A stretch of 64,000 bases of DNA from a virus. Positions 9,755 through 52,928 of this stretch are shown here, piece by piece. The notes beneath the pieces are model-generated. The model was not told the DNA's origin. It searched no databases and saw only the letters and a list, made by a program, of their open reading frames with translations. The translations under genes and the position numbers were made by a program. The stretch is from positions 124,001 to 188,000 of IMG/VR virus record IMGVR_UViG_3300033995_001164; one strand, written 5' to 3'. The first letter of the stretch is position 1, and every line of letters starts with the position of its first letter.

Positions 9755-10475
9755 CTACCCCAAATCCGACATTAACTGTCATCTTTTCTCCTGATGGGGT
9801 GATTAAAACTCTACTTAAATCTAATCTTGGTTCATTTTCATTCATAAATTTTCTTATGAATTTTGAATCCATGATTGGCATTTGTTCAACAAACTTGGCA
9901 ATCTCTGATTTATCGGTACTTCCGTTCACCTCTACAATTTCTTTTTGAAGTCTCCAAGTAATTTTTGGAACTACTCTACCAACAGGGTAAGAATCTTCTA
10001 ATTTACTTATCTCTAAAATTTCACCATAACTCAAAGGTTTTAATTTAATAGTCGCCTGTGATTTTGGTAAATTAGTTATAAAGGTACCATCTTCATTAGG
10101 TGTCTGTCCATTAATAACTGATAATGTATCAAGTGTTACTGTCGCTTGAAATGGTTTTCGTGTTGATGGGTCAACTAAATTTAAATTAATTTCAGGACCA
10201 AATCCTGTATTTCTCAAAAATATTAGAACTGCCTCAACGTCTCCCTCTAACATATCCTCAACCTTAAGGTCCGGTTCATAGATTTTACTTCTTAATAGTG
10301 TTGTGGTCATATCATTACCACCAGCCATTAAAATGTTTTCATCATTTGCCGTTAGATAACCTACCTTGATAGATTTCTTTTTATTTTTGTAAAACACTCC
10401 TCCCGATGGTAGTGGTACTACATCATGTGGTAACGTAAAGTTTTGTTGTCCGTATTCGATTGCCTGATTTTCCAT
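9732..10475 (-). CDS. gp26/gp51-type baseplate hub assembly protein, tail assembly chaperone
   Basis: A 247-residue protein with the N-terminal signature of the T4 baseplate hub assembly family (PF12322-like): LPSGGVFYKNKKKSIKVGYL, then TANDENIL and a serial Leu/Val-rich helix pair (EDMLEGDVEAVLIFLRNTGF). T4 gp26 has 208 residues. In T4, gp26 and gp51 are needed to assemble the hub and are thought to act as tape-measure chaperones. Here it lies between the tube gene and the tape measure gene, exactly where lambda-type G/GT chaperones sit. The last codons, GAG TTT TTT CGT CCT TTC TTC TGA, form a candidate slippery site that leads into the extension at 9593-9754. Family call is firm in kind; chaperone role is inferred from position. 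Confidence 0.65.
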   Translation of the reverse strand: MENQAIEYGQQNFTLPHDVVPLPSGGVFYKNKKKSIKVGYLTANDENILMAGGNDMTTTLLRSKIYEPDLKVEDMLEGDVEAVLIFLRNTGFGPEINLNLVDPSTRKPFQATVTLDTLSVINGQTPNEDGTFITNLPKSQATIKLKPLSYGEILEISKLEDSYPVGRVVPKITWRLQKEIVEVNGSTDKSEIAKFVEQMPIMDSKFIRKFMNENEPRLDLSRVLITPSGEKMTVNVGFGVEFFRPFF

Positions 10476-10485
10476 ATAAAAAAAT

Positions 10486-10512
10486 AACCGTAAAGTTTAT
10501 GTCTTTACGGTT
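10486..10512 (-). terminator. rho-independent terminator after tail tube gene
   Basis: A perfect 10-bp stem (AACCGTAAAG / CTTTACGGTT) with a 7-base loop, followed on the minus strand by a T-rich tract (revcomp of 10476-10485). It lies between the tube gene and the chaperone gene and would let the abundant tube protein be transcribed separately. Confidence 0.7.
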
Positions 10513-10569
10513 AAATATAATTAGTATTGATTTTTTATCAACACATATGTTTTTATTAGTATTAAAAAA

Positions 10570-11058
10570 TCAATAAACTAATACACATCTATCCATTCTT
10601 AACGATACACTAATATCTGCAAGAGCGTCAGTACTATACGCCAATGAACCAAAGTCAACACTAGTTAAGAATGTACCATACAAAATCCATTTCTCAACAA
10701 CAACTCCTGTTGGGTCTAACATCTCAAGGTCAATATCTTTCTTATAACCCGCAGCATATCCCATACGACCTGTAACAGATTCAGCATGTAAACGAACCCA
10801 CTCCATAAGAGCTTGTGATGCAGATGGACCAATTGGGTCTCTAAATTTAACAGGTATCTCATCCCAATTAAATCTACCCGCAACATACGTTGAGGTATTT
10901 AGAAATTGAATTTCTGTAGGTTGAATTTTAATTTTAGGTCTTGCAGCACTTTCTACAAACCATTCGTTAATCCCTAAGCTTGATGGAAACCTTAGTATGA
11001 ATCGATTCTGTCTTTTCGGTTCGTAAGGAATCGGCATTTTCATCAATAAATCAGCCAT
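10570..11058 (-). CDS. tail tube protein, gp19-like
   Basis: A 162-residue protein that matches the T4 gp19 tail tube family in length (T4: 163) and pattern: N-terminal RQNRFILRFPSSLGINEWFVESAARPK, typical of tube subunits, then WDEIPVKFRDPIGPSASQALMEWVR and a beta-rich C-terminal half ending LRMDRCVLVY. Tube subunits stack as hexameric rings inside the sheath and around the tape measure. It lies between sheath and chaperone genes as in T4-like phages and has its own terminator downstream. The 176-base leader upstream carries an ATATTTATGA element (11091-11100) and the ACTAGT repeats. This is one of the most secure calls in the window. Confidence 0.9.
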   Translation of the reverse strand: MADLLMKMPIPYEPKRQNRFILRFPSSLGINEWFVESAARPKIKIQPTEIQFLNTSTYVAGRFNWDEIPVKFRDPIGPSASQALMEWVRLHAESVTGRMGYAAGYKKDIDLEMLDPTGVVVEKWILYGTFLTSVDFGSLAYSTDALADISVSLRMDRCVLVY

Positions 11059-11090
11059 ATTATTTTAAATTAGTTTTTCTTTGTTTATTA

Positions 11091-11100
11091 TCATAAATAT
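11091..11100 (-). promoter_or_regulatory. ATATTTATGA element before tail tube gene
   Basis: On the coding strand this reads ATATTTATGA, about 33 bases upstream of the tube ATG, in the same place and orientation as the RTATTTAT words before other virion genes. A late promoter is proposed. Confidence 0.35.
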
Positions 11101-11161
11101 ATCCTTTTGGAAAATATTTTTATTGACTTTCTGAATTTAATTTATTATCATTATAATCCAG

Positions 11162-11235
11162 ACTAGTTTATTTAATTCTAGTTAATTTAACTAGTTTTTA
11201 ATTAATTATTTAATACTAGTTCTTTATAACTAGTT
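11162..11235. repeat. array of five CTAGT-centred palindromic words
   Basis: Five copies of a CTAGT word (ACTAGT, TCTAGT, AACTAGTT, ACTAGT, AACTAGTT) lie at about 11162, 11177, 11189, 11215 and 11228, spaced 12-26 bases apart in A+T-rich sequence. AACTAGTT is a perfect palindrome, so neighbouring copies can pair as hairpins. The last overlaps the stop of the HAD gene. The array fills most of the leader between the HAD gene and the tube gene. Role unknown: operator array, terminator-like structure or packaging/replication element are possible. Confidence 0.5.
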
Positions 11236-12064
11236 AATATTCTTTTTTTATTCCTCCTGCTGTTGAATAAGTTTTAACAATATTGCCAGGCTTATCTTTG
11301 AAGTGTTTTTTCATAACTTCTACATTTCGTATATCGTCGTCAGAAAAACCAATTGTTGGTTTTGTTGGAACAAAATTATTACTCACATCTTTTTTTAGGA
11401 ACGCTTTTTTGTCTAAATTAGACGACATTTCTTTAATGTAATCCACAAATTTATCCATAGCACGAACTTTAGCTTCTTCAGGATTTGCCGCACCCTCCTC
11501 ATCATTGTAAGATACAGGATGGAATTTACACATATCCAAGTAAGCTTTGATTAATTCGTCATCACCCATTTCATCATCACCGGAAATACTTCTATATTTT
11601 TTAAGATTCTTAATCAACTCTTCTTTGTCTATCCCGTTGAATCCTTCTATGATATAATTGTATACGGCTTGTTTTAACGTATTAGGATTGTGTCCACGAG
11701 CGGTTATGATAGAAAAGATAGAACCTTCGTTAATAGCCTCTCTAAAGTCGTCAAATGCCGGTCCAATCTTGGCTCTCATTGCATCAATTAAAAAGTTTTT
11801 ATCTCCGGGTGTTTGAAAATTTTTAAAAGGTTCGTTTCCATATCCTACAACAGTCTCACCATTATATTCAAAAGGTTCTTTACCTAATTGATGTCTGTAT
11901 TCAGCAAAATCATCAGTACTCATCCCAATTTCGTCACCGTCCTCAGTTTTAACCATAATCTTGGTTGGCATATGAACAATATTATCGTCCCAATCGAATG
12001 CGTAATATTTCATATCAGGAGTACCCTGTTCACTAATTCCTTCTTTTAATGTATTTTTTTTCAT
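11234..12064 (-). CDS. HAD-superfamily phosphatase-like protein
   Basis: A 276-residue protein with the HAD hydrolase motifs in order: motif I FDWDDNI (DxD, residues 23-29), motif II SIITARGHNP (around 117-126) and motif IV IGFSDDDIRNVE (around 243-254). These residues carry the phosphoaspartate intermediate and bind Mg2+. The pattern resembles the phosphatase half of T4 polynucleotide kinase and related phage HAD enzymes, but no kinase P-loop is present. The substrate cannot be read from sequence. It sits between the sheath and tube genes, an unusual place for an enzyme; the N-terminus KKNTLKEGISE also fits an (L/I)-x-E prohead-protease site, so packaging in the virion is possible. Confidence 0.7.
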   Translation of the reverse strand: MKKNTLKEGISEQGTPDMKYYAFDWDDNIVHMPTKIMVKTEDGDEIGMSTDDFAEYRHQLGKEPFEYNGETVVGYGNEPFKNFQTPGDKNFLIDAMRAKIGPAFDDFREAINEGSIFSIITARGHNPNTLKQAVYNYIIEGFNGIDKEELIKNLKKYRSISGDDEMGDDELIKAYLDMCKFHPVSYNDEEGAANPEEAKVRAMDKFVDYIKEMSSNLDKKAFLKKDVSNNFVPTKPTIGFSDDDIRNVEVMKKHFKDKPGNIVKTYSTAGGIKKEY

Positions 12065-45544: not shown

Positions 45545-46306
45545 ATGGATACTAAAATTAAAAATAAGATAATTAAAGAATATCTAAAAGGTAAGGGTTC
45601 TACAACAATTGAGAGGGAATTAAAAGTTTCAAAAAAAACAATATTATTAATTCTTAACAATGAAGGTATTGTTAGAAAAAGAGATAGATGCAATTCTTTA
45701 AATATTGTGAAATCCGAAAATTATTTTATAGTTAATCGAATATGCCCTATATGCAACAAAAATGTTGAAACTAAATCAATAGATAGGGCAATTGCCTGTA
45801 GGAACCATTATAGAAAAATTAATAATAATACTCCTTGTAAGACATGTTCTATAAAATTACAAACAGGTGAGGGAAATCCATTTTACGGAAAAAAACACAC
45901 AAAAGAATCTCTTAATAAATTGTCAAAAACATTATCGGACAACCCAAGAAAATTTAGTTCATCGTCAAAACCCGAAAAACAAATTGAAAAAATTATTAAA
46001 GGTCTTGGGTATGAGGTTAAGAGAACATATAAAGTCAATGAATATATTTGTGATATCTACATACCTAAATTTAATCTAATAATTGAATATAATGGGGATT
46101 ATTGGCATTGTAATCCAAATAAATATGATTCTAATTATGTCCACCCTCATAAGAAAAAACCCTCATCTCAAATATGGTGTGAGGATAAAATAAGAATTGA
46201 CAACATCATTGATTATGATTATAATTTGGAAGTGGTTTGGGAATCTAATTTTAATGAAAAAACCACAATTCAAAATATAATTAAAAAATATGAAACAAAA
46301 AATTAA
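45545..46306 (+). CDS. homing endonuclease with HTH, zinc site, NUMOD3 and VSR-like nuclease
   Basis: A 253-residue modular enzyme. N-terminal HTH (IIKEYLKGKGSTTIERELKV, then SKKTILLILNNEGI), Cys pairs (CPICNK, CKTC), a NUMOD3-type motif GNPFYGKKHTKESL and a C-terminal nuclease: PEKQIEKIIKGLGYEVKRTY, YICDIYIPKFNLIIEYNGDYWH and KIRIDNIIDYDYNLEVVWES. The D-x(n)-E-x-N/W-H pattern matches the VSR-like fold of EDxHD homing endonucleases. It stands free between head-type genes and a glycosyltransferase, whose start it overlaps by 17 bases. Target unknown; the adjacent gene or the operon border is likely. Confidence 0.85.
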   Translation: MDTKIKNKIIKEYLKGKGSTTIERELKVSKKTILLILNNEGIVRKRDRCNSLNIVKSENYFIVNRICPICNKNVETKSIDRAIACRNHYRKINNNTPCKTCSIKLQTGEGNPFYGKKHTKESLNKLSKTLSDNPRKFSSSSKPEKQIEKIIKGLGYEVKRTYKVNEYICDIYIPKFNLIIEYNGDYWHCNPNKYDSNYVHPHKKKPSSQIWCEDKIRIDNIIDYDYNLEVVWESNFNEKTTIQNIIKKYETKN

Positions 46307-47507
46307 TGTTGTAGTAATACCCAGCGATAAAAGTGGAGTTGGAAAATTTCGTTCTGTTGACCCTCATGTCTTTCTTCAAAATCTTTATAAAGATGAATTT
46401 CATATCGATATCGTCTATGACCCACCATACGATGATATGAACTTTTGGAAACAATATCAAATAGTTTCATACCATAGGAGTATTGGAGCAGATTTTGAAA
46501 GAGCAAACGCCCTTATCAGAATTTTAAACTCCATGGGTATTGTTACTGTTTGTGATATTGACGATTATTGGATGCCGGGTAAAGAACACCCAATTCACGA
46601 TATTATTAAATTTAATAAAATAAATGAAAAAATTGTCGAGAATCTTAAGGTTTCAAAATACGTTACAACAACAACAACTTTATTTGCGGATGAAATTAAA
46701 AAAATAAATAAAAATGTTTTTGTAATCCCCAACGCGATAAATCCAAATGAACCACAATTTAAAGAACCAACATTAGAGTCAGATAGATTGAGAATTGGTT
46801 GGTTAGGCGGTTCATCTCACTTACATGATTTAGATATTTTAAATCCATCATTTGGTAAATTAGCACAACACAAAGATAAATTACAATATGTTCTTTGTGG
46901 ATTTGATGTTAGGGGAACTGTCACAGAAATCAATTCTCAAACAGGGGAGCACGTAAAAAGAGATATTAGACCGGAAGAAACAGTTTGGGCTCAATATGAA
47001 AAGATTTTTACACAGAATTACGGAAATATTTCTGAAGAATACAAAAAACATTTAGTAAATTATAATACTAATTCGTTTCCGGATGAAATGACTGAATCAT
47101 ACTTAAGAGTTTGGACTAAACCAGTTACATCTTATGCTAAGAATTATTCAAAATTTGATGTATCTTTGTCTCCAATTAAGAATCATATGTTTAATAGAAT
47201 GAAATCTCAATTAAAAGTTATTGAGGCGGGATTCTATAAAAAGGCGTTAATCGCGTCTAACATTGGACCATACACTCTTGATTTGAAACATTGTTTAAAA
47301 AATGGGGAATTTGTTGATGGAAATGCGATGTTAGTTGATGAGGTTAGAAACCATTCTGATTGGGCAAAATGTATTGAAAAACTGATGAAGAACCCTAATT
47401 TAGTTAAAGATATGGGGGAAAGATTATATGAAACCGTTAAAGACAGATACGATTTGAATATAGTAACAAAAGATAGAAGAGATTTTTACTTAAGCATTAT
47501 TAAATAA
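46290..47507 (+). CDS. GT-B glycosyltransferase (GT4-type)
   Basis: A 405-residue protein with a GT-B fold outline: INVVVIPSDKSGVGKFRSVDP, GIVTVCDIDDYW, KYVTTTTTLFADEI, VFVIPNAINPNE, then RIGWLGGSSHLHDLD and a C-terminal Glu-rich block (MKSQLKVIEAGFYKKALIAS). PNAI...GWLGG is typical of GT4 enzymes. The donor sugar and acceptor are unknown. It starts within the end of the homing endonuclease gene; the previous neighbour in the ancestral order is therefore uncertain. The 3' neighbour is the exonuclease gene. Confidence 0.75.
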   Translation: MKQKINVVVIPSDKSGVGKFRSVDPHVFLQNLYKDEFHIDIVYDPPYDDMNFWKQYQIVSYHRSIGADFERANALIRILNSMGIVTVCDIDDYWMPGKEHPIHDIIKFNKINEKIVENLKVSKYVTTTTTLFADEIKKINKNVFVIPNAINPNEPQFKEPTLESDRLRIGWLGGSSHLHDLDILNPSFGKLAQHKDKLQYVLCGFDVRGTVTEINSQTGEHVKRDIRPEETVWAQYEKIFTQNYGNISEEYKKHLVNYNTNSFPDEMTESYLRVWTKPVTSYAKNYSKFDVSLSPIKNHMFNRMKSQLKVIEAGFYKKALIASNIGPYTLDLKHCLKNGEFVDGNAMLVDEVRNHSDWAKCIEKLMKNPNLVKDMGERLYETVKDRYDLNIVTKDRRDFYLSIIK

Positions 47508-47508
47508 T

Positions 47509-48210
47509 ATGATAAACATTCCATTAAATAAGATTTTATTTTTAGATATTGAAACCGTTGGGATTGAACCCACTTGGGAATCGTTATGTACGAATAGACC
47601 GGAACTTTCCTTTCAGTTTGAAAAATATTTTGATTGGTTTCAAAAAAGGTTCCCCGAAGATGCCGATGAAGGTCCGGGAAAAATGTTTGTTAATCGGGCA
47701 GCACTAGTCCCTGAATTCTTAAGAATTGCTTGTGTTAGTGTTGCCTTTATTGGGCCTGATGGTGAAACAAAAATGCAGTCATTTAGTAATCTTGATGAAA
47801 AAGAATTACTAATAGATGTTCAAAAAATGCTTTATCGTACCGGTGAATTAGGGTTTTTTCTTTGCGGACATAATGTTAAAGGTTTTGATATTCCTGTTCT
47901 TGCTAAAAGAATGATAATGAATGGGTTACTACCTCCAAAAATTTTACCAGGTCACGATACTAAACCTTGGGAAATTAAAGCTCTTGATACTAAAGAAGTG
48001 TGGCAATATGGTGGTTATGGGTCAATTGCCTCATTAGAGTTAATGTGTGTGTGTTTAGGTGTTGAATCGTCTAAAAATATGGAAGTAACAGGAAATAAAG
48101 TTCATGAAGCCTTTTGGATTAAAAAAGACATTAAAGGTATTGTAGAATACTGCGAAAAAGATGTTGAGGTACTAGTGGAAGTAATTAAAAAATTAAAAGA
48201 ATTAAAATAA
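47509..48210 (+). CDS. DEDD-family 3'-5' exonuclease, PolB-exonuclease-like
   Basis: A 233-residue protein with exonuclease motifs: LFLDIETVGIEPTW (Asp-x-Glu, residues 10-20), LCGHNVKGFDIPVLAKRM (second Asp) and IVEYCEKDVEVLVEV (Tyr...Asp), the DEDDy pattern of predicted exonucleases related to the PolB proofreading domain (PF10108-like). It should remove nucleotides from 3' ends and may process DNA or RNA during replication. Its stop shares one base with the dUTPase start (TAATG), so the two are coupled. Alternatives include oligoribonuclease-type activity. Confidence 0.8.
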   Translation: MINIPLNKILFLDIETVGIEPTWESLCTNRPELSFQFEKYFDWFQKRFPEDADEGPGKMFVNRAALVPEFLRIACVSVAFIGPDGETKMQSFSNLDEKELLIDVQKMLYRTGELGFFLCGHNVKGFDIPVLAKRMIMNGLLPPKILPGHDTKPWEIKALDTKEVWQYGGYGSIASLELMCVCLGVESSKNMEVTGNKVHEAFWIKKDIKGIVEYCEKDVEVLVEVIKKLKELK

Positions 48211-48926
48211 TGGGAGGATTTGATGGTTTAGATGGTTTAGGGTTTGACCCTGAAATATTAAATGATATTCAAAATCATTTTAAAAAAATACAGGAAGAAT
48301 CAGGTGTTGAGATTGACGAAGACGACGAATACCAAAAAGAGTTGGAAGAATTGATTGGTATGACGTATGAGGAGATGAACGAAGACGCGTTAAAAGCAAT
48401 TAAGACTAAAAATTTAAAAGTGGAATTATTAAATGAGGATGCGAAGTTTCCTGAATACGCTTACCCAAGTGATTCAGGATTTGACCTATTTTCGACGGAA
48501 GAAGTTATTCTACCTCCATTTGGTCGGGGATTAGTCCCAACAGGTATTAAATTATCAATCCCTGATGAATTTGAAATACAAGTAAGACCAAAAAGCGGTT
48601 TAGCGATTAATCAAGGTTTAACAGTATTAAATACTCCCGGAACTGTAGATTGTTTCTCTGAGGATATGAAAATACTTACAGTTGATGGTGAGAAATTATT
48701 ATCGGAATTAAAAATAAACGATGTTGTTTTTTCAGTTAATGAAAAAACTTTTGAGATTGAAAAAGATGTCGTATCCAACATATTTGATACAGAAACTCAA
48801 GAAGTTCTTATTATTGAAACGGAATTAGGTGTGCTAGAAGTCACACCAAATTCCGAGGTATATACGACTAACGGAATTATTTTAGCCAAAAATTTAAAAG
48901 AAAATGATGAAATTATAATCTTTTAA
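48210..48926 (+). CDS. dut: dUTPase N-terminal half fused to N-intein
   Basis: A 238-residue protein: residues 1-70 are an acidic N-terminal extension (GVEIDEDDEYQKELEELIGM), residues 71-147 the N-terminal dUTPase half and residues 148-238 the N-intein. dUTPase motif I is YPSDSGFDLFSTEE (85-98) and motif II RPKSGLAINQGL (126-137). Motif III begins NTPGTVD and breaks at Cys148. dUTPase hydrolyses dUTP to dUMP, keeping uracil out of phage DNA and feeding dTMP synthesis. The missing motifs III-V are in the gene at 49841. Activity requires trans-splicing with that product. The start overlaps the exonuclease stop by one base. Confidence 0.95.
   Translation: MGGFDGLDGLGFDPEILNDIQNHFKKIQEESGVEIDEDDEYQKELEELIGMTYEEMNEDALKAIKTKNLKVELLNEDAKFPEYAYPSDSGFDLFSTEEVILPPFGRGLVPTGIKLSIPDEFEIQVRPKSGLAINQGLTVLNTPGTVDCFSEDMKILTVDGEKLLSELKINDVVFSVNEKTFEIEKDVVSNIFDTETQEVLIIETELGVLEVTPNSEVYTTNGIILAKNLKENDEIIIF
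48651..48926 (+). mobile_element. N-terminal half of split intein in dUTPase
   Basis: A 91-residue N-intein beginning Cys148: CFSEDMKILTVDGEKLLSEL (block A), then a beta-rich core and VLEVTPNSEVYTTNGIIL (block B) ending EIIIF and a stop. Cys1 is the expected nucleophile. Block B reads TPNS; most inteins have T-x-x-H there, so the catalytic His is replaced by Ser. Length matches N-halves of natural split inteins (about 90-105 residues). Confidence 0.9.
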
Positions 48927-48938
48927 TCACCAGTATAC

Positions 48939-48960
48939 TATCTATCAATAAAGATAGATA
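48939..48960 (+). promoter_or_regulatory. hairpin in the gap before the nested endonuclease gene
   Basis: TATCTATC (48939-48946) and GATAGATA (48953-48960) form a perfect 8-bp stem with a 6-base loop, ending six bases before the ATG at 48967. It may hide the endonuclease start or stop the dUTPase-N transcript. No T-run follows, so a terminator is less likely. Confidence 0.5.
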
Positions 48961-48966
48961 TAGAGT

Positions 48967-49854
48967 ATGTCGGTAAAATGTCAAATATGCGGGGTTGAGA
49001 AAGAATACTCAATAGTGGAACACTTAAAGTACGAACACAAAATAACCTCAAAAGAATATAAAGAAAGGTTTCCTAAATCTAATGTTAAGTCAGTTGAATT
49101 TTTTAAAATGAATTCAAATAATATGAAGTCAAAATGGTCGGAACCTGAGTTTAAAGAAAAGATGAAAATTTCAAGAAAAATTTCACATAATAAACCAGAA
49201 TTTATTGAAAAAATGAGTGAAATTGTGAAAAAAAAACACAAGGAAACTCCTGAAATTTACTCCGGTTTTACATCGTGGTCTAAAAGTGAAAGGTTTAAAG
49301 AATGGGTTAAATCTGAAGAAAGAATTAAAAAAATATCAAAAAGTTCAAAAGAAAGATGGGAAGATGATGATTATCGAAAAAGAACTATACAAACAATTAA
49401 AGAGAGATTAAATGATGGGAGATGTCAAAAAAGTGACGATTTTAAAGAAAAAATGTCGGAGATAATATCAAAATTATATAGTTCAGGTAAGTTCTCTAAT
49501 GACAGTAATAGATATAAAACAGGAACATACACATCAAATAAACAAGAAACTTTTTATTATTCATCATCATACGAGTTAGATTCTATGAAGTTTTTGGACT
49601 CTATAGATTATGTTAAAACATGGACAAATAAACACGGAATAAGAATCAAATATTATTATAATAATATGAATAGATACTATATTCCTGATTTCTATGTTGA
49701 ATTAGAAAATGGTAATAAATTTATTATTGAAATGAAGGGATGGGAAACCGAAGAAGTTTTAATTAAACAAAAATATACATTAAAACAATACCCAAACTAT
49801 AAACTATTTTATTCAGTCGACGATTTAAAAAAATTCATATATGAAAACAAGTAA
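48967..49854 (+). CDS. homing endonuclease (zinc finger plus PD-(D/E)XK) nested in split dUTPase
   Basis: A 295-residue protein with N-terminal zinc finger (VKCQICGVEKEYSIVEHLKY, then EHKITSKEYKERFP), a long Lys/Ser/Glu-rich helical middle with repeated K(P/S)EF-type segments (KWSEPEFKEKMKIS, NKPEFIEKMSEI, KSDDFKEKMSEI) that probably track DNA, and a C-terminal nuclease: YYSSSYELDSMKFLDS, RYYIPDFYVELENG and NKFIIEMKGWE, a clear PD-(D/E)XK core (PDF...E-M-K). It lies in the 914-base space between the two halves of the split intein. Its end overlaps the C-half start by 14 bases. It would home into intact or split intein-free dUTPase alleles. Confidence 0.9.
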   Translation: MSVKCQICGVEKEYSIVEHLKYEHKITSKEYKERFPKSNVKSVEFFKMNSNNMKSKWSEPEFKEKMKISRKISHNKPEFIEKMSEIVKKKHKETPEIYSGFTSWSKSERFKEWVKSEERIKKISKSSKERWEDDDYRKRTIQTIKERLNDGRCQKSDDFKEKMSEIISKLYSSGKFSNDSNRYKTGTYTSNKQETFYYSSSYELDSMKFLDSIDYVKTWTNKHGIRIKYYYNNMNRYYIPDFYVELENGNKFIIEMKGWETEEVLIKQKYTLKQYPNYKLFYSVDDLKKFIYENK

Positions 49855-49948
49855 AATTAAAAAAATCACCAAAACGGAAAAACAAACTTATGATATAACA
49901 GTAAAAAACAATCATAATTTTTTTTGTAATAAACATCTAATACACAAT
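49841..49948 (+). mobile_element. C-terminal half of split intein in dUTPase
   Basis: A 36-residue C-intein: basic start MKTSKIKKITKTEKQ, block F TYDITVKNNHNFFCN and block G KHLIHN, followed by Cys+1. The penultimate His and final Asn for Asn cyclisation are present. The length is the classic C-half of naturally split inteins, and the basic character complements the acidic N-half, as in known split pairs. Confidence 0.92.
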
Positions 49949-50146
49949 TGTGGTTATAATGGAGAAATTAAAGTAATCGTCTTCAACACAAATAATATAA
50001 CAAAATCAATCCCTAAAGGGACAAAAATCGCTCAAGCAGTTTTATGTCCAGTGGTTAATGGAAAATATGTCAACTTAATTCAAGTTGATTCAATAACTGA
50101 AGGGGAACGAGGAAATAACGGATTTGGGTCAACAGGTTTAATTTAA
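49841..50146 (+). CDS. dut: C-intein fused to dUTPase C-terminal half
   Basis: A 101-residue protein: residues 1-36 are the C-intein, residues 37-101 the C-terminal dUTPase half. The extein starts CGYNGEIKVIVFN (motif III), has KGTKIAQAVLCPV (motif IV) and ends RGNNGFGSTGLI (motif V, residues 90-101), the phosphate-binding tail. Joined to the N-half, Asp147-Cys37 restores a GTVD-CGYNGEI motif III; Cys is accepted in place of the usual Asp or Ala. The spliced protein would be 212 residues. Start at 49841 lies within the endonuclease's end, so translation is coupled. Confidence 0.95.
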   Translation: MKTSKIKKITKTEKQTYDITVKNNHNFFCNKHLIHNCGYNGEIKVIVFNTNNITKSIPKGTKIAQAVLCPVVNGKYVNLIQVDSITEGERGNNGFGSTGLI

Positions 50147-50153
50147 AACAATC

Positions 50154-50717
50154 ATGAAAATAATACAGTTAGGAACAAATGATGGCCAGGATGATTTAAC
50201 AAAAATAGTTATGTCGTATAAACCATCGGACATTGAACTTTTGGTTTTAGTTGAACCTCAAGAAATTTTTAATAGTAGTATTAAAAATATATATCAAGAT
50301 TATAATTTTAATATTGAAAATAAAATTATAAATTTAGACGAAAGTAAAAAATCTGAAATTTTTTATACTTGTATTCATAAACATTTAAGCAGTTTAAAAA
50401 AAGAAAACATTGAAAATCATGGTTTAGGTGTTCCAATATCAGAGGTTGTTTACGAATCAATAACATTGAATGAGTTATTTGAAAAATATAATGTGGTTGA
50501 TTTGGATATTTTATTTGTTGATGTTGAAGGTATGGACGACAAAATAATATCAAGTATTGATTTTAATAAAGTTTCTATAAAACAAATTTACTACGAATTT
50601 TCTCACATAGATGACGAATCTTTTATTAATTTTTTAAATACAAGGGGATATGAAGTCCATAAAAATATTTTTTATAATGGATATACCAATTTGGCAACTA
50701 AAAAATGTAATTTATGA
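50154..50717 (+). CDS. FkbM-family methyltransferase
   Basis: A 187-residue protein with a compact SAM-dependent methyltransferase fold: motif I MKIIQLGTNDGQDDLTK, LLVLVEPQE, SITLNELFEKYNVVDLDILF and VDVEGMDDKIISS, the order in the FkbM family, which methylates sugar hydroxyls in glycans. It sits between the dUTPase C-half and a row of glycosyltransferases, so sugar capping is the probable role. Its stop overlaps the next gene start by four bases. Confidence 0.8.
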   Translation: MKIIQLGTNDGQDDLTKIVMSYKPSDIELLVLVEPQEIFNSSIKNIYQDYNFNIENKIINLDESKKSEIFYTCIHKHLSSLKKENIENHGLGVPISEVVYESITLNELFEKYNVVDLDILFVDVEGMDDKIISSIDFNKVSIKQIYYEFSHIDDESFINFLNTRGYEVHKNIFYNGYTNLATKKCNL

Positions 50718-51445
50718 AAATATCGTTAGTTTGTATTGCGAAAAATGAGGATAATTATATTCAGGAATGGATTAATTATCATTTAAAATTAGGGTTTGAT
50801 AATATTTTTATTTACGAAAATGATTGGGACTCAAAAATTGAAAATCATAAAGTCACTAAATACCCTGTTGTGGGAGTTAAACAACAAATTCCCGTCTATA
50901 ATGAGTTTATTTCAAAACATAAAAACAGTTATGATTGGGCAGCGTTTTTAGATGTTGATGAGTTTTTGGTATTAAAAAAACATAAAACAATTCACGAATT
51001 TATTGAGGACTACAAAGACAATGATTCTATTGGGGTTAATTGGGTTTTGTTCGGTGACAATAATTTAACTAAAAGTGACGACTACGGAATGATTAATCGT
51101 TTTACAATGAGACAAAATTCACCAAATCACCACATTAAATCAATAATTAATTTAAAAAATGCTGGATATATGTCGGTACATAACCATAGTGGTAAATGTG
51201 TTGATACCAATTATAAAAGAATTGACAATTCACCATTTAATTATAATGGACCTATAGATGTCGCACAAATAAATCATTATTTTTGTAAAACAAAAGATGA
51301 GTTTATCGAGAAATTAAATAGGGGTAGGGCCGACAATGGAACACATAGAGACATTTCCGATTTTAACGACAATAATTTCAATGAAATTGAAGACTTAACA
51401 GCAATGAACTTTTTATATGATAACAATAATTTACTCAACACATAA
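50714..51445 (+). CDS. GT92-like glycosyltransferase
   Basis: A 243-residue protein with a GT-A fold: ISLVCIAKNEDNYIQEWINY, YHLKLGFDNIFIYENDWD, AAFLDVDEFLVLKK and NSPNHHIKSI, then HNHSGKCVD and QINHYFCKTKDEFIEKLNRG. FLDVDEF is the metal motif of the GT92/Glyco_transf_2_4 group. It probably extends an oligosaccharide. Overlaps both neighbours slightly (4 and 29 bases). Confidence 0.8.
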   Translation: MKISLVCIAKNEDNYIQEWINYHLKLGFDNIFIYENDWDSKIENHKVTKYPVVGVKQQIPVYNEFISKHKNSYDWAAFLDVDEFLVLKKHKTIHEFIEDYKDNDSIGVNWVLFGDNNLTKSDDYGMINRFTMRQNSPNHHIKSIINLKNAGYMSVHNHSGKCVDTNYKRIDNSPFNYNGPIDVAQINHYFCKTKDEFIEKLNRGRADNGTHRDISDFNDNNFNEIEDLTAMNFLYDNNNLLNT

Positions 51446-52928
51446 AGACGAAATTTATAATAACAAATTTAGACAACATTTGTTACAAAGTTCCGGGCTA
51501 AAAGATATTCAAATATTAGAATACATTAATCACAATCAATATAGTTTATCTGAATTATACAATAGAGGTATATCCGAATCAGAAAACGACATCATTGTAT
51601 GTTGTCATAACGATATAAAACTTGAAAATGGTTGGGGTAAAAAATTACTTAATGATTTTGATAAAAATCCTGATTATGGGATTATAGGTAAAGCTGGTTC
51701 TTGTTATTTTCCGGAATCCGGAATTTATTGGGAAAAAATGCGTCAGACAATGGTTGGTCAAGTTTATCATCACCCTGAAGGTCGGAAAAAATGGTTAAAT
51801 ACTTATTCATCAAAATTACCGTATTTAATCCCTGTCGTAACTATTGATGGATTATTTATATCGTTTAATAAATTAAAAGTTAAGAACCAATTTGATGAAA
51901 CAATTGGTAAATTTCACTTTTATGACCATTTATTTTGTATACCAAATTATTTAGACGGTGTTAAAATTGGTGTAACCTCATCATTTGAAATTACTCATGA
52001 ATCCGTAGGACAACCGAATCAAGAATTTTTTGAATCAAAAGATAAATTTATTTTAAAGTGGGGAAAAAAATTACCCTTAGATTTGAAACCTGAAAAAATA
52101 TATGTCCCCGAAATTAAAGAAAAACCAATTAAAAATATTGGTAAAGTTGCCATTATTATTCCGACCAAAAGTAAATTAGATTTATTATTACCTTGTATCG
52201 AATCATTTTACGAACATTGTAACGAAAATTTATTTGAAATATTCATATCAGACACTGGTTCATCAGAAGAAGAAAAAAATGAAATTAAAAATTTTATTTC
52301 ATTTAAACAAAACATAAAGTTAATTGAATATGATTATTACAATTTTGCGAAAATAAATAATGATGTCGTTAAAAATCATTTAACTGACTCTCATGAGTTC
52401 ATTTTATTTTGTAATAATGATATTAAGGTTTGTAATAATGCGATTTACGGAATGTTAAAAATCTTCAAAGAAAATAAAAAAGTTGGGACCGTAGGTGCTA
52501 GACTTCACTTTAAAGATAATACAATACAACATGGAGGTATTACAATGTTAATTAATGGTAATAATATTTTAGGTGTCACCCATAATAATTTAGGTAGTTA
52601 CTATGGTGATTCGATTAGTAAGAAAACTATTCTCGGAAGTACCGGAGCGTTATTAATGATAAAAAAGATAGTATTTGAACAATCCGGATATTTTAACGAA
52701 AATTACATCAATTGTTTTGAAGATGTTGAATTAAATTTAAAAACTAACTTGTTAGGCTACTCTAATGTGTATGACGGAAATATAGTTGCGTATCACTATG
52801 AAAGCAGTACAAGAAATGAAGATGAAGATAATATAAAAAAATTAATGTCAGATTACCACAATAATTTATTACCATTCATAATTAAACATTTTAATCATTT
52901 AAAAGATAAAATTCAAATTATTAATTAA
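51417..52928 (+). CDS. tandem GT2 glycosyltransferase
   Basis: A 503-residue two-domain protein. The first domain (MITIIYSTHKDEIYNNKFRQ, SENDIIVCCHNDIKLENGWG) is a compact GT2-like fold; the second (VAIIIPTKSKLDLLLPCIESF, FILFCNNDIKVCNNAIYGM, STGALLMIKKIVFEQSGYF, INCFEDVELNLKTNLLGYS) is a complete GT2 of the rhamnosyl-transferase type. Tandem enzymes often add two sugars in series. The start ATG overlaps the previous gene by 29 bases; a later ATG is not favoured. A 111-base gap follows. Confidence 0.8.
   Translation: MITIIYSTHKDEIYNNKFRQHLLQSSGLKDIQILEYINHNQYSLSELYNRGISESENDIIVCCHNDIKLENGWGKKLLNDFDKNPDYGIIGKAGSCYFPESGIYWEKMRQTMVGQVYHHPEGRKKWLNTYSSKLPYLIPVVTIDGLFISFNKLKVKNQFDETIGKFHFYDHLFCIPNYLDGVKIGVTSSFEITHESVGQPNQEFFESKDKFILKWGKKLPLDLKPEKIYVPEIKEKPIKNIGKVAIIIPTKSKLDLLLPCIESFYEHCNENLFEIFISDTGSSEEEKNEIKNFISFKQNIKLIEYDYYNFAKINNDVVKNHLTDSHEFILFCNNDIKVCNNAIYGMLKIFKENKKVGTVGARLHFKDNTIQHGGITMLINGNNILGVTHNNLGSYYGDSISKKTILGSTGALLMIKKIVFEQSGYFNENYINCFEDVELNLKTNLLGYSNVYDGNIVAYHYESSTRNEDEDNIKKLMSDYHNNLLPFIIKHFNHLKDKIQIIN

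What the first reader, a model, noticed from the sequence alone, without database searches (positions are those of the whole stretch)
48210..50146. Fractured dUTPase: split intein with a nested homing endonuclease gene
The sequence shows a dUTPase cut in motif III. The N-half ends GTVD then Cys1 of a 91-residue N-intein and a stop. A 295-codon PD-(D/E)XK endonuclease gene follows, then a 36-residue C-intein ending HN joined to CGYNGEIKVIV. Motifs I-II lie in the first gene and III-V in the last. Such 'fractured genes' are known from marine metagenomes for helicase, IMPDH and ribonucleotide reductase genes (Dassa and colleagues), but I do not recall one in dUTPase. This also makes the endonuclease a mobile gene resident in an essential enzyme's intein.
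Basis: partly seen in the sequence, partly recalled or inferred. Interest (0 to 1): 0.95.

Follow-up and report, generated by a model that had tools for sequence, protein, structure and literature searches.

The report
Split-intein dUTPase carrying a homing endonuclease
In this giant phage the gene for dUTPase, an enzyme that keeps uracil out of DNA, is broken in two by a self-splicing protein element with a DNA-cutting gene wedged in the middle, and relatives in other phages show that the three-part insert moves between dUTPase genes as one unit.

Summary
The dUTPase (48210-50146) is split after the catalytic Asp of motif III (GTVD|CGYNGE). A 91-aa N-intein and a 36-aa C-intein end and begin the two genes, with a separate 295-codon nuclease gene between. 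Joined exteins align full length with solved dUTPases (1.4e-34). This 309-kb phage record has no other dUTPase match.

IMG/VR holds about 28 distinct alleles at this site; all are split, none contiguous.

Mobility is shown by comparison. The dUTPase tree places this allele among intein-free ones (98/95), and one origin is rejected (p=0.002). Synonymous divergence inside the cassette is several-fold lower than in the flanks in the clearest pairs. Intein-free kin have Ser or Gln where this allele has Cys+1.

The nuclease is PD-(D/E)XK (TnsA-like fold) with a predicted zinc finger; other alleles carry a Vsr-like nuclease. Every allele lacks the block B histidine. Hairpins often cover the nuclease start.

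The kind is known (fractured genes, Dassa 2009); dUTPase host, nuclease and missing histidine make it a variant. That paper was not readable here, so dUTPase may already be listed. Splicing and cutting are untested.

The parts
48210..48650 (+). N-extein of dUTPase, 147 aa: N-terminal extension, motif I (SDSGFDL), motif II (RPKSGLA), first half of motif III ending at the catalytic Asp (LNTPGTVD)
   Evidence: PF00692 positions 2-63, E 1.6e-9; NCBIfam PRK00601 8e-22; PHROG 135 dUTPase 7e-27; 88-93% identical to intein-free dUTPases L009-L015
48651..48923 (+). N-intein, 91 aa, Cys1; block B reads VTPNSEVYT (Thr65 kept, Ser68 in place of His); stop TAA 48924-48926
   Evidence: PF14890, PT-HINT and TIGR01445 partial matches below cut-off; joined IntN+IntC profile matches gp41-1, NrdJ-1 and DnaX mini-intein structures, 4e-11 to 2e-18
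48927..48966 (+). Leader of the nuclease gene with a hairpin (about 48934-48969) reaching the start codon; contains TATCAATAAAGATA (48943-48956), exact in 9 of 11 close alleles (L008 and L117 differ by one base)
   Evidence: fold z-score -2.7 here, -2.8 to -6.2 in six other alleles, no significant fold in L124 and L127; 92.8% of cells paired against 28-46% when slid, but covariation not above shuffles; element occurs exactly once in the window
48967..49854 (+). Free-standing homing-type endonuclease, 295 aa: N-terminal CxxC...HxxxxH zinc-finger motif (C5, C8, H19, H24), helical middle, C-terminal PD-(D/E)XK core (E203, P240-D241, E255-x-K257)
   Evidence: these residues invariant in 11 alleles down to 36% identity; AlphaFold2 model and Foldseek best hit TnsA 1t0f, prob 1.00, E 1.5e-3; DUF1064 and TnsA-like Pfam matches below cut-off
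49841..49948 (+). C-intein, 36 aa, block F (YDITVKNNHNFF) and block G (LIHN); its ATG overlaps the end of the nuclease gene
   Evidence: PF14890 positions 121-155, 1.7e-5; TIGR01443; overlapping start in all close alleles
49949..50146 (+). C-extein of dUTPase, 65 aa plus stop: Cys+1, second half of motif III (GYNGE), motif IV, motif V (GFGSTG)
   Evidence: PF00692 positions 71-129, 2.5e-10; spliced 148-aa core matches dUTPase structure 8y1q at 1.4e-34 across the junction

Best explanation
This is a mobile tripartite cassette (N-intein, endonuclease gene, C-intein) inserted in a phage dUTPase gene at motif III. The two half-enzymes are made separately, the intein halves associate, and a class-1-like trans-splicing reaction (Cys1, Cys+1, terminal His-Asn) joins the exteins into a 212-residue dUTPase with Cys where intein-free relatives have Ser, next to the catalytic Asp. 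The endonuclease most likely cuts intein-free dUTPase alleles at the junction, so that repair copies the cassette, including the +1 Cys codon, into them. A hairpin over its start codon probably limits its translation from the dUTPase transcript. Shown: anatomy, conservation, purifying selection, horizontal transfer of the cassette. Inferred: splicing activity, cleavage site, hairpin function.
For: Both halves and intein motifs. About 28 alleles with one split point, none contiguous. Intein-free homologues up to 93% identical in the N-extein give an exact empty site. dUTPase tree: this allele sits among intein-free rows (98/95), L008 among others (100/98); a single clade of intein-bearing rows is rejected, p-AU 0.002. 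Intein and nuclease trees place L008 with L026/L030 instead. dS for L029/L117: 0.39 IntN, 0.36 nuclease, 0.32 IntC against 1.95 and 1.23 in the flanks; L008/L030: 0.43-0.64 against 2.0-2.2; dN/dS at most 0.26 in every part and pair. The +1 residue is Ser or Gln in 18 intein-free rows, Cys here. PD-(D/E)XK residues invariant and TnsA-like fold.
Against: No splicing or cleavage has been measured. The block B histidine, essential in many inteins, is absent in every allele. Two alleles have damaged C-halves (L026 lacks motif V, L027 lacks about 45 aa). No long co-conversion tract is visible next to the insertion. In more diverged pairs, such as WIN/L037, dS is near saturation throughout and shows little contrast.
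Confidence: 0.87

Rival explanations
1. The intein halves no longer splice (no block B His); the dUTPase halves assemble non-covalently, or the enzyme is dead.
For: Block B His absent in every allele; L026 and L027 have truncated C-halves.
Against: Cys1, the final Asn and Cys/Ser+1 are kept in all alleles, and block B Thr and block F Asp in most, although these positions would be free if splicing were lost; dN/dS for both intein parts is at most 0.21; in the sampled set +1 Cys occurs only in intein-bearing alleles. Natural inteins without block B His that splice are known (Tko CDC21-1 group, cited in PMC6333167), and the histidine is dispensable in the PolB16 OarG split intein (PMC10189870).
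Confidence: 0.08
2. The nuclease is not a homing enzyme but a freestanding nuclease of other function that happened to land between the halves.
For: Its nearest annotated relative among catalogued phages is a freestanding NUMOD3-domain endonuclease in Bacillus phage Moonbeam; no cleavage data.
Against: The loci found with the nuclease profile lie in dUTPases at this site, down to 34% identity; it moves together with the intein; other alleles have an unrelated nuclease in the same place.
Confidence: 0.07
3. Assembly or sequencing artefact that joins unrelated fragments or breaks an open frame.
For: Metagenomic records only.
Against: Identical locus in five further metagenome records, about 28 different alleles with the same architecture, three genes in three frames.
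Confidence: 0.01

Closest known systems
Fractured genes with split inteins and a free-standing endonuclease (Dassa et al. 2009, NAR 37:2560; known to me from memory of the abstract, full text not held)
   Same: Enzyme gene of DNA metabolism broken by a split intein with a free-standing endonuclease gene between the halves; phage setting; Vsr-like nuclease in some alleles; control element brought in with the nuclease gene
   Different: Host enzyme is dUTPase (I could not check whether it is one of the eight enzyme types of that paper); the nuclease here is a zinc-finger PD-(D/E)XK type, not Vsr-like; block B His missing in every allele
gp41-1, NrdJ-1 and IMPDH-1 natural split inteins
   Same: Similar split point (about 90 + 36 aa) and fold; joined intein matches gp41-1 (4e-11) and NrdJ-1 (8e-13) structures
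   Different: Other host enzymes; NrdJ-1 has TPDH at block B where this family has TPNS; by recall gp41-1 keeps the His as well
Phage MIJ3 PolB split intein with HNH endonuclease (PMC6892783)
   Same: Split intein halves flanking a homing endonuclease gene in a jumbo phage
   Different: DNA polymerase host, HNH nuclease, block B TEDH present
Inteins lacking or not needing block B His (Tko CDC21-1 group; PolB16 OarG)
   Same: Block B His absent (CDC21-1) or dispensable (PolB16) (PMC6333167, PMC10189870)
   Different: CDC21-1 has Leu at -1 and PolB16 is a Ser1 intein; here -1 is always the enzyme's catalytic Asp and residue 1 is Cys

Membership tests
Fractured gene (split intein + intervening free-standing endonuclease gene) | Enzyme split in two genes, N-intein at end of first, C-intein at start of second | tested here: met
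Fractured gene (split intein + intervening free-standing endonuclease gene) | Separate endonuclease gene between the halves | tested here: met
   48967-49854, PD-(D/E)XK fold and residues
Fractured gene (split intein + intervening free-standing endonuclease gene) | Protein trans-splicing restores the enzyme | not testable with these tools
   needs expression
Class 1 intein | Nucleophile at position 1, Cys/Ser/Thr at +1, terminal His-Asn, block F Asp | tested here: met
   Cys1, Cys+1, LIHN, YDITV in this allele; exceptions elsewhere: L123 ends GN; L128, L295, L298, L300 have YH in place of YD
Class 1 intein | Block B TxxH | tested here: not met
   TPNS/TSNT/TPGT/TDTQ and similar in all alleles; His missing, Thr mostly kept. 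Hence 'class-1-like', not a textbook class 1 intein
All-beta dUTPase (PF00692) | Motifs I-V in order once the halves are joined | tested here: met
   full-length alignment with 8y1q, 1.4e-34
PD-(D/E)XK nuclease | E...PD...ExK residues and alpha/beta core | tested here: met
Homing endonuclease | Cuts the allele that lacks the element, at the insertion site | not testable with these tools
   only indirect: co-transfer with the intein
Vsr/EDxHD homing endonuclease family (Dassa 2009) | Vsr-like catalytic domain | tested here: not met
   window nuclease is TnsA-like PD-(D/E)XK; a Vsr-like protein is seen instead in allele L130 (weak MTES_1575/DUF559 matches) and, by eye, in L295, L298, L300

The most novel reading that the evidence does not exclude
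The dUTPase motif III site carries an obligately split intein lineage that never occurs in one piece, has dispensed with the block B histidine (perhaps with the enzyme's own catalytic Asp at -1 taking part), and serves as a docking site for interchangeable homing nucleases, so that the three-part cassette rather than the intein is the unit that spreads.
Probability: 0.3. Interest if true: 0.82.

Novelty: new variant of a known kind. Interest (0 to 1): 0.66.

Why it matters
Comparative data of this depth (about 28 alleles, matched empty sites, synonymous divergence inside and outside the cassette) make the question of how a split intein can spread directly testable: the cassette moves whole although its halves are separate genes. 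The set supplies naturally split inteins that lack the block B histidine, useful for the splicing mechanism and as orthogonal tools, and a zinc-finger PD-(D/E)XK nuclease family predicted to recognise a conserved site in dUTPase genes.

Tried and rejected
Dassa 2009 full text: not held. Literature search for 'split intein' with 'dUTPase': no paper; of the papers holding intein with dUTPase or deoxyuridine, those I opened did not describe a dUTPase intein; not all listed papers were opened. Genome scan with A5 returned only ordinary-looking cellular dUTPases because one pattern was too loose; not inspected further. Catalogued phages: tblastn with three N-halves found no record covering 80% of the query; Rhizobium phage RHph_I4 looked possible but is an ordinary single-gene dUTPase. 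Rfam: no match over the locus. T4-type late promoter (TATAAATA, CTAAATA) as the meaning of the leader: not enriched. Structure of the N-half: model too poor to use. Covariation test of the leader hairpin: not above shuffles within close alleles, where the stems barely vary. Alignment A8 had a wrong L142 coordinate and was replaced by A9. A search of translated L128 used the wrong strand and was dropped.

Full report
The locus. Gene 1 (48210-48926) encodes 147 residues of dUTPase and a 91-residue N-intein; a 295-codon nuclease gene follows (48967-49854); gene 3 (49841-50146) encodes a 36-residue C-intein and 65 residues of dUTPase. HMM searches identify each part. The joined exteins align end to end with solved dUTPases (8y1q, 1.4e-34), and the break falls between the catalytic Asp and the GYxGE half of motif III. 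The joined intein profile matches DnaX mini-intein, NrdJ-1 and gp41-1 structures. The three genes are in three different frames. The record is a 309,177-base virus contig with no other PF00692 match; since the record may be incomplete, this does not prove that the phage lacks a second dUTPase.

Relatives. Scans of IMG/VR with each gene, with profiles, and with a degenerate DNA pattern for the N-junction gave the same locus at 100% identity in five further metagenome records and many other alleles. A systematic pass over all fetched loci found 23 distinct intein-N peptides, all ending 90-102 codons after the junction, and no contiguous intein. Five more diverged alleles (L286, L294, L295, L298, L300) that this pass missed were seen, so about 28 in all. 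A nuclease gene lies between the halves in the loci long enough to show it that I inspected. Most have a zinc-finger PD-(D/E)XK nuclease like the window's, down to about 36% identity. L130, L295, L298 and L300 have a nuclease with zinc repeats and a Vsr-like end (L130 by weak Pfam matches; the others by eye); L127/L128/L154 and L125 have zinc-rich frames whose catalytic part I did not identify. The junction pattern was neutral as to split or contiguous inteins.

Mobility. In a dUTPase tree built from the exteins only, the window allele falls inside a set with nine intein-free rows (98/95) and L008 inside another intein-free group (100/98). With long branches removed, a single clade of intein-bearing rows is rejected (p-AU 0.0021), as is WIN plus L008 (0.0019). 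These tests were run after the first tree had been seen, so the p values are somewhat flattering. The intein and nuclease trees put L008 with L026/L030 instead. Synonymous divergence gives the clearest picture: L029/L117 have dS 0.39 (IntN), 0.36 (nuclease) and 0.32 (IntC) but 1.95 and 1.23 in the exteins; L008/L030 have 0.64, 0.55 and 0.43 against 2.17 and 2.00. The contrast starts at the intein boundaries, so the cassette moves as a unit. Values near 2 are close to saturation and should be read only as 'much larger'; pairs such as WIN/L037 are too diverged inside the cassette to show the contrast. dN/dS of at most 0.26 in all parts and pairs indicates that dUTPase halves, intein and nuclease are all under purifying selection.

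Empty site. Thirteen intein-free representatives have Ser and five have Gln at the position after GTVD; this allele and most intein-bearing ones have Cys, two (L121, L123) have Ser. From the closest intein-free allele to the window two bases of that codon change (TCC to TGT). The simplest reading is that the +1 Cys codon arrives with the cassette. No longer co-conversion tract is visible.

Block B. All alleles lack the block B histidine (TPNS, TSNT, TENT, TPGT, TDTQ, IPKSK and so on), while Cys1 and the final Asn remain in all. The block F Asp is kept except in L128, L295, L298 and L300, which have His there (YHxT), and L123 ends GN instead of HN. Friedel et al. (PMC6333167) report that bulky -1 residues can compensate for the block B histidine and that a small natural group lacks it; Pasch et al. 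(PMC10189870) found it dispensable in PolB16. Here the -1 residue is the enzyme's catalytic Asp throughout, which invites, but does not show, a similar role.

Nuclease. The AlphaFold model (pLDDT 73.9, low pTM 0.40) has a confident C-terminal alpha/beta core; Foldseek puts TnsA first (E 1.5e-3, probability 1.00). E203, PD240-241 and ExK255-257 are invariant in eleven alleles, as are C5, C8, H19 and H24. There is one copy of this nuclease in the record. None of the libraries searched names it as a homing endonuclease family.

Leader. Between the N-intein stop and the nuclease start lies a hairpin that reaches the start region; z-scores are -2.7 (window), -3.3, -4.4, -3.6, -6.2, -4.4 and -2.8 in alleles with partly unrelated sequence, but 0.3 in L124 and -1.6 in L127, and L129 and L130 have almost no leader. 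Within close alleles pairing is register-specific but there is no covariation signal. Translational damping of the nuclease, as for T4 I-TevI (recall), is a plausible but untested function.

Novelty. The arrangement is the fractured gene of Dassa et al. 2009, which by my recollection lists eight enzyme types, a Vsr-like nuclease in about half the loci and control elements brought in with the nuclease. I could not read it, so priority for dUTPase is unresolved. What appears additional is the depth of the dUTPase family, the zinc-finger PD-(D/E)XK nuclease, the uniform absence of the block B histidine, and the evidence that the split cassette is transferred whole.

Noticed in passing
G000:C1:204326-205243 (-), outside the window (locus L166): A second intein in the same phage, contiguous and with an HNH endonuclease inside, interrupts the portal protein (PHROG 213, 6e-62), next to a terminase large subunit gene; it seems to keep a block B His (TTWEH).
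   Followed up: partly
L027 950-2250; L026 3457-3615: Two alleles have damaged C-halves: L027 lacks about 45 aa of the C-extein and about 20 aa of the nuclease; L026 ends before motif V. Either decay or assembly error.
   Followed up: no
L128 (minus strand), reverse-complement 9818-11980: The phage with the L127/L128 dUTPase allele carries, directly downstream, what looks by eye like an IMP dehydrogenase with a contiguous intein (GNG|CFG...VHN|SG) that has a block B His, so fractured and ordinary inteins sit side by side.
   Followed up: partly
L128, L295, L298, L300 C-inteins: In the alleles with zinc-repeat nucleases (Vsr-like or unassigned) the block F Asp is replaced by His (YHxT), so a histidine reappears near the active site where the block B His is missing.
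   Followed up: no
window 46290-52928: The dUTPase locus is followed by an FkbM methyltransferase and glycosyltransferase genes and preceded by a PolB-like exonuclease; L117 shares parts of this neighbourhood.
   Followed up: no
window 48210-48410: These phage dUTPases carry a 65-70 aa acidic N-terminal extension that is kept in intein-free relatives; function unknown.
   Followed up: no
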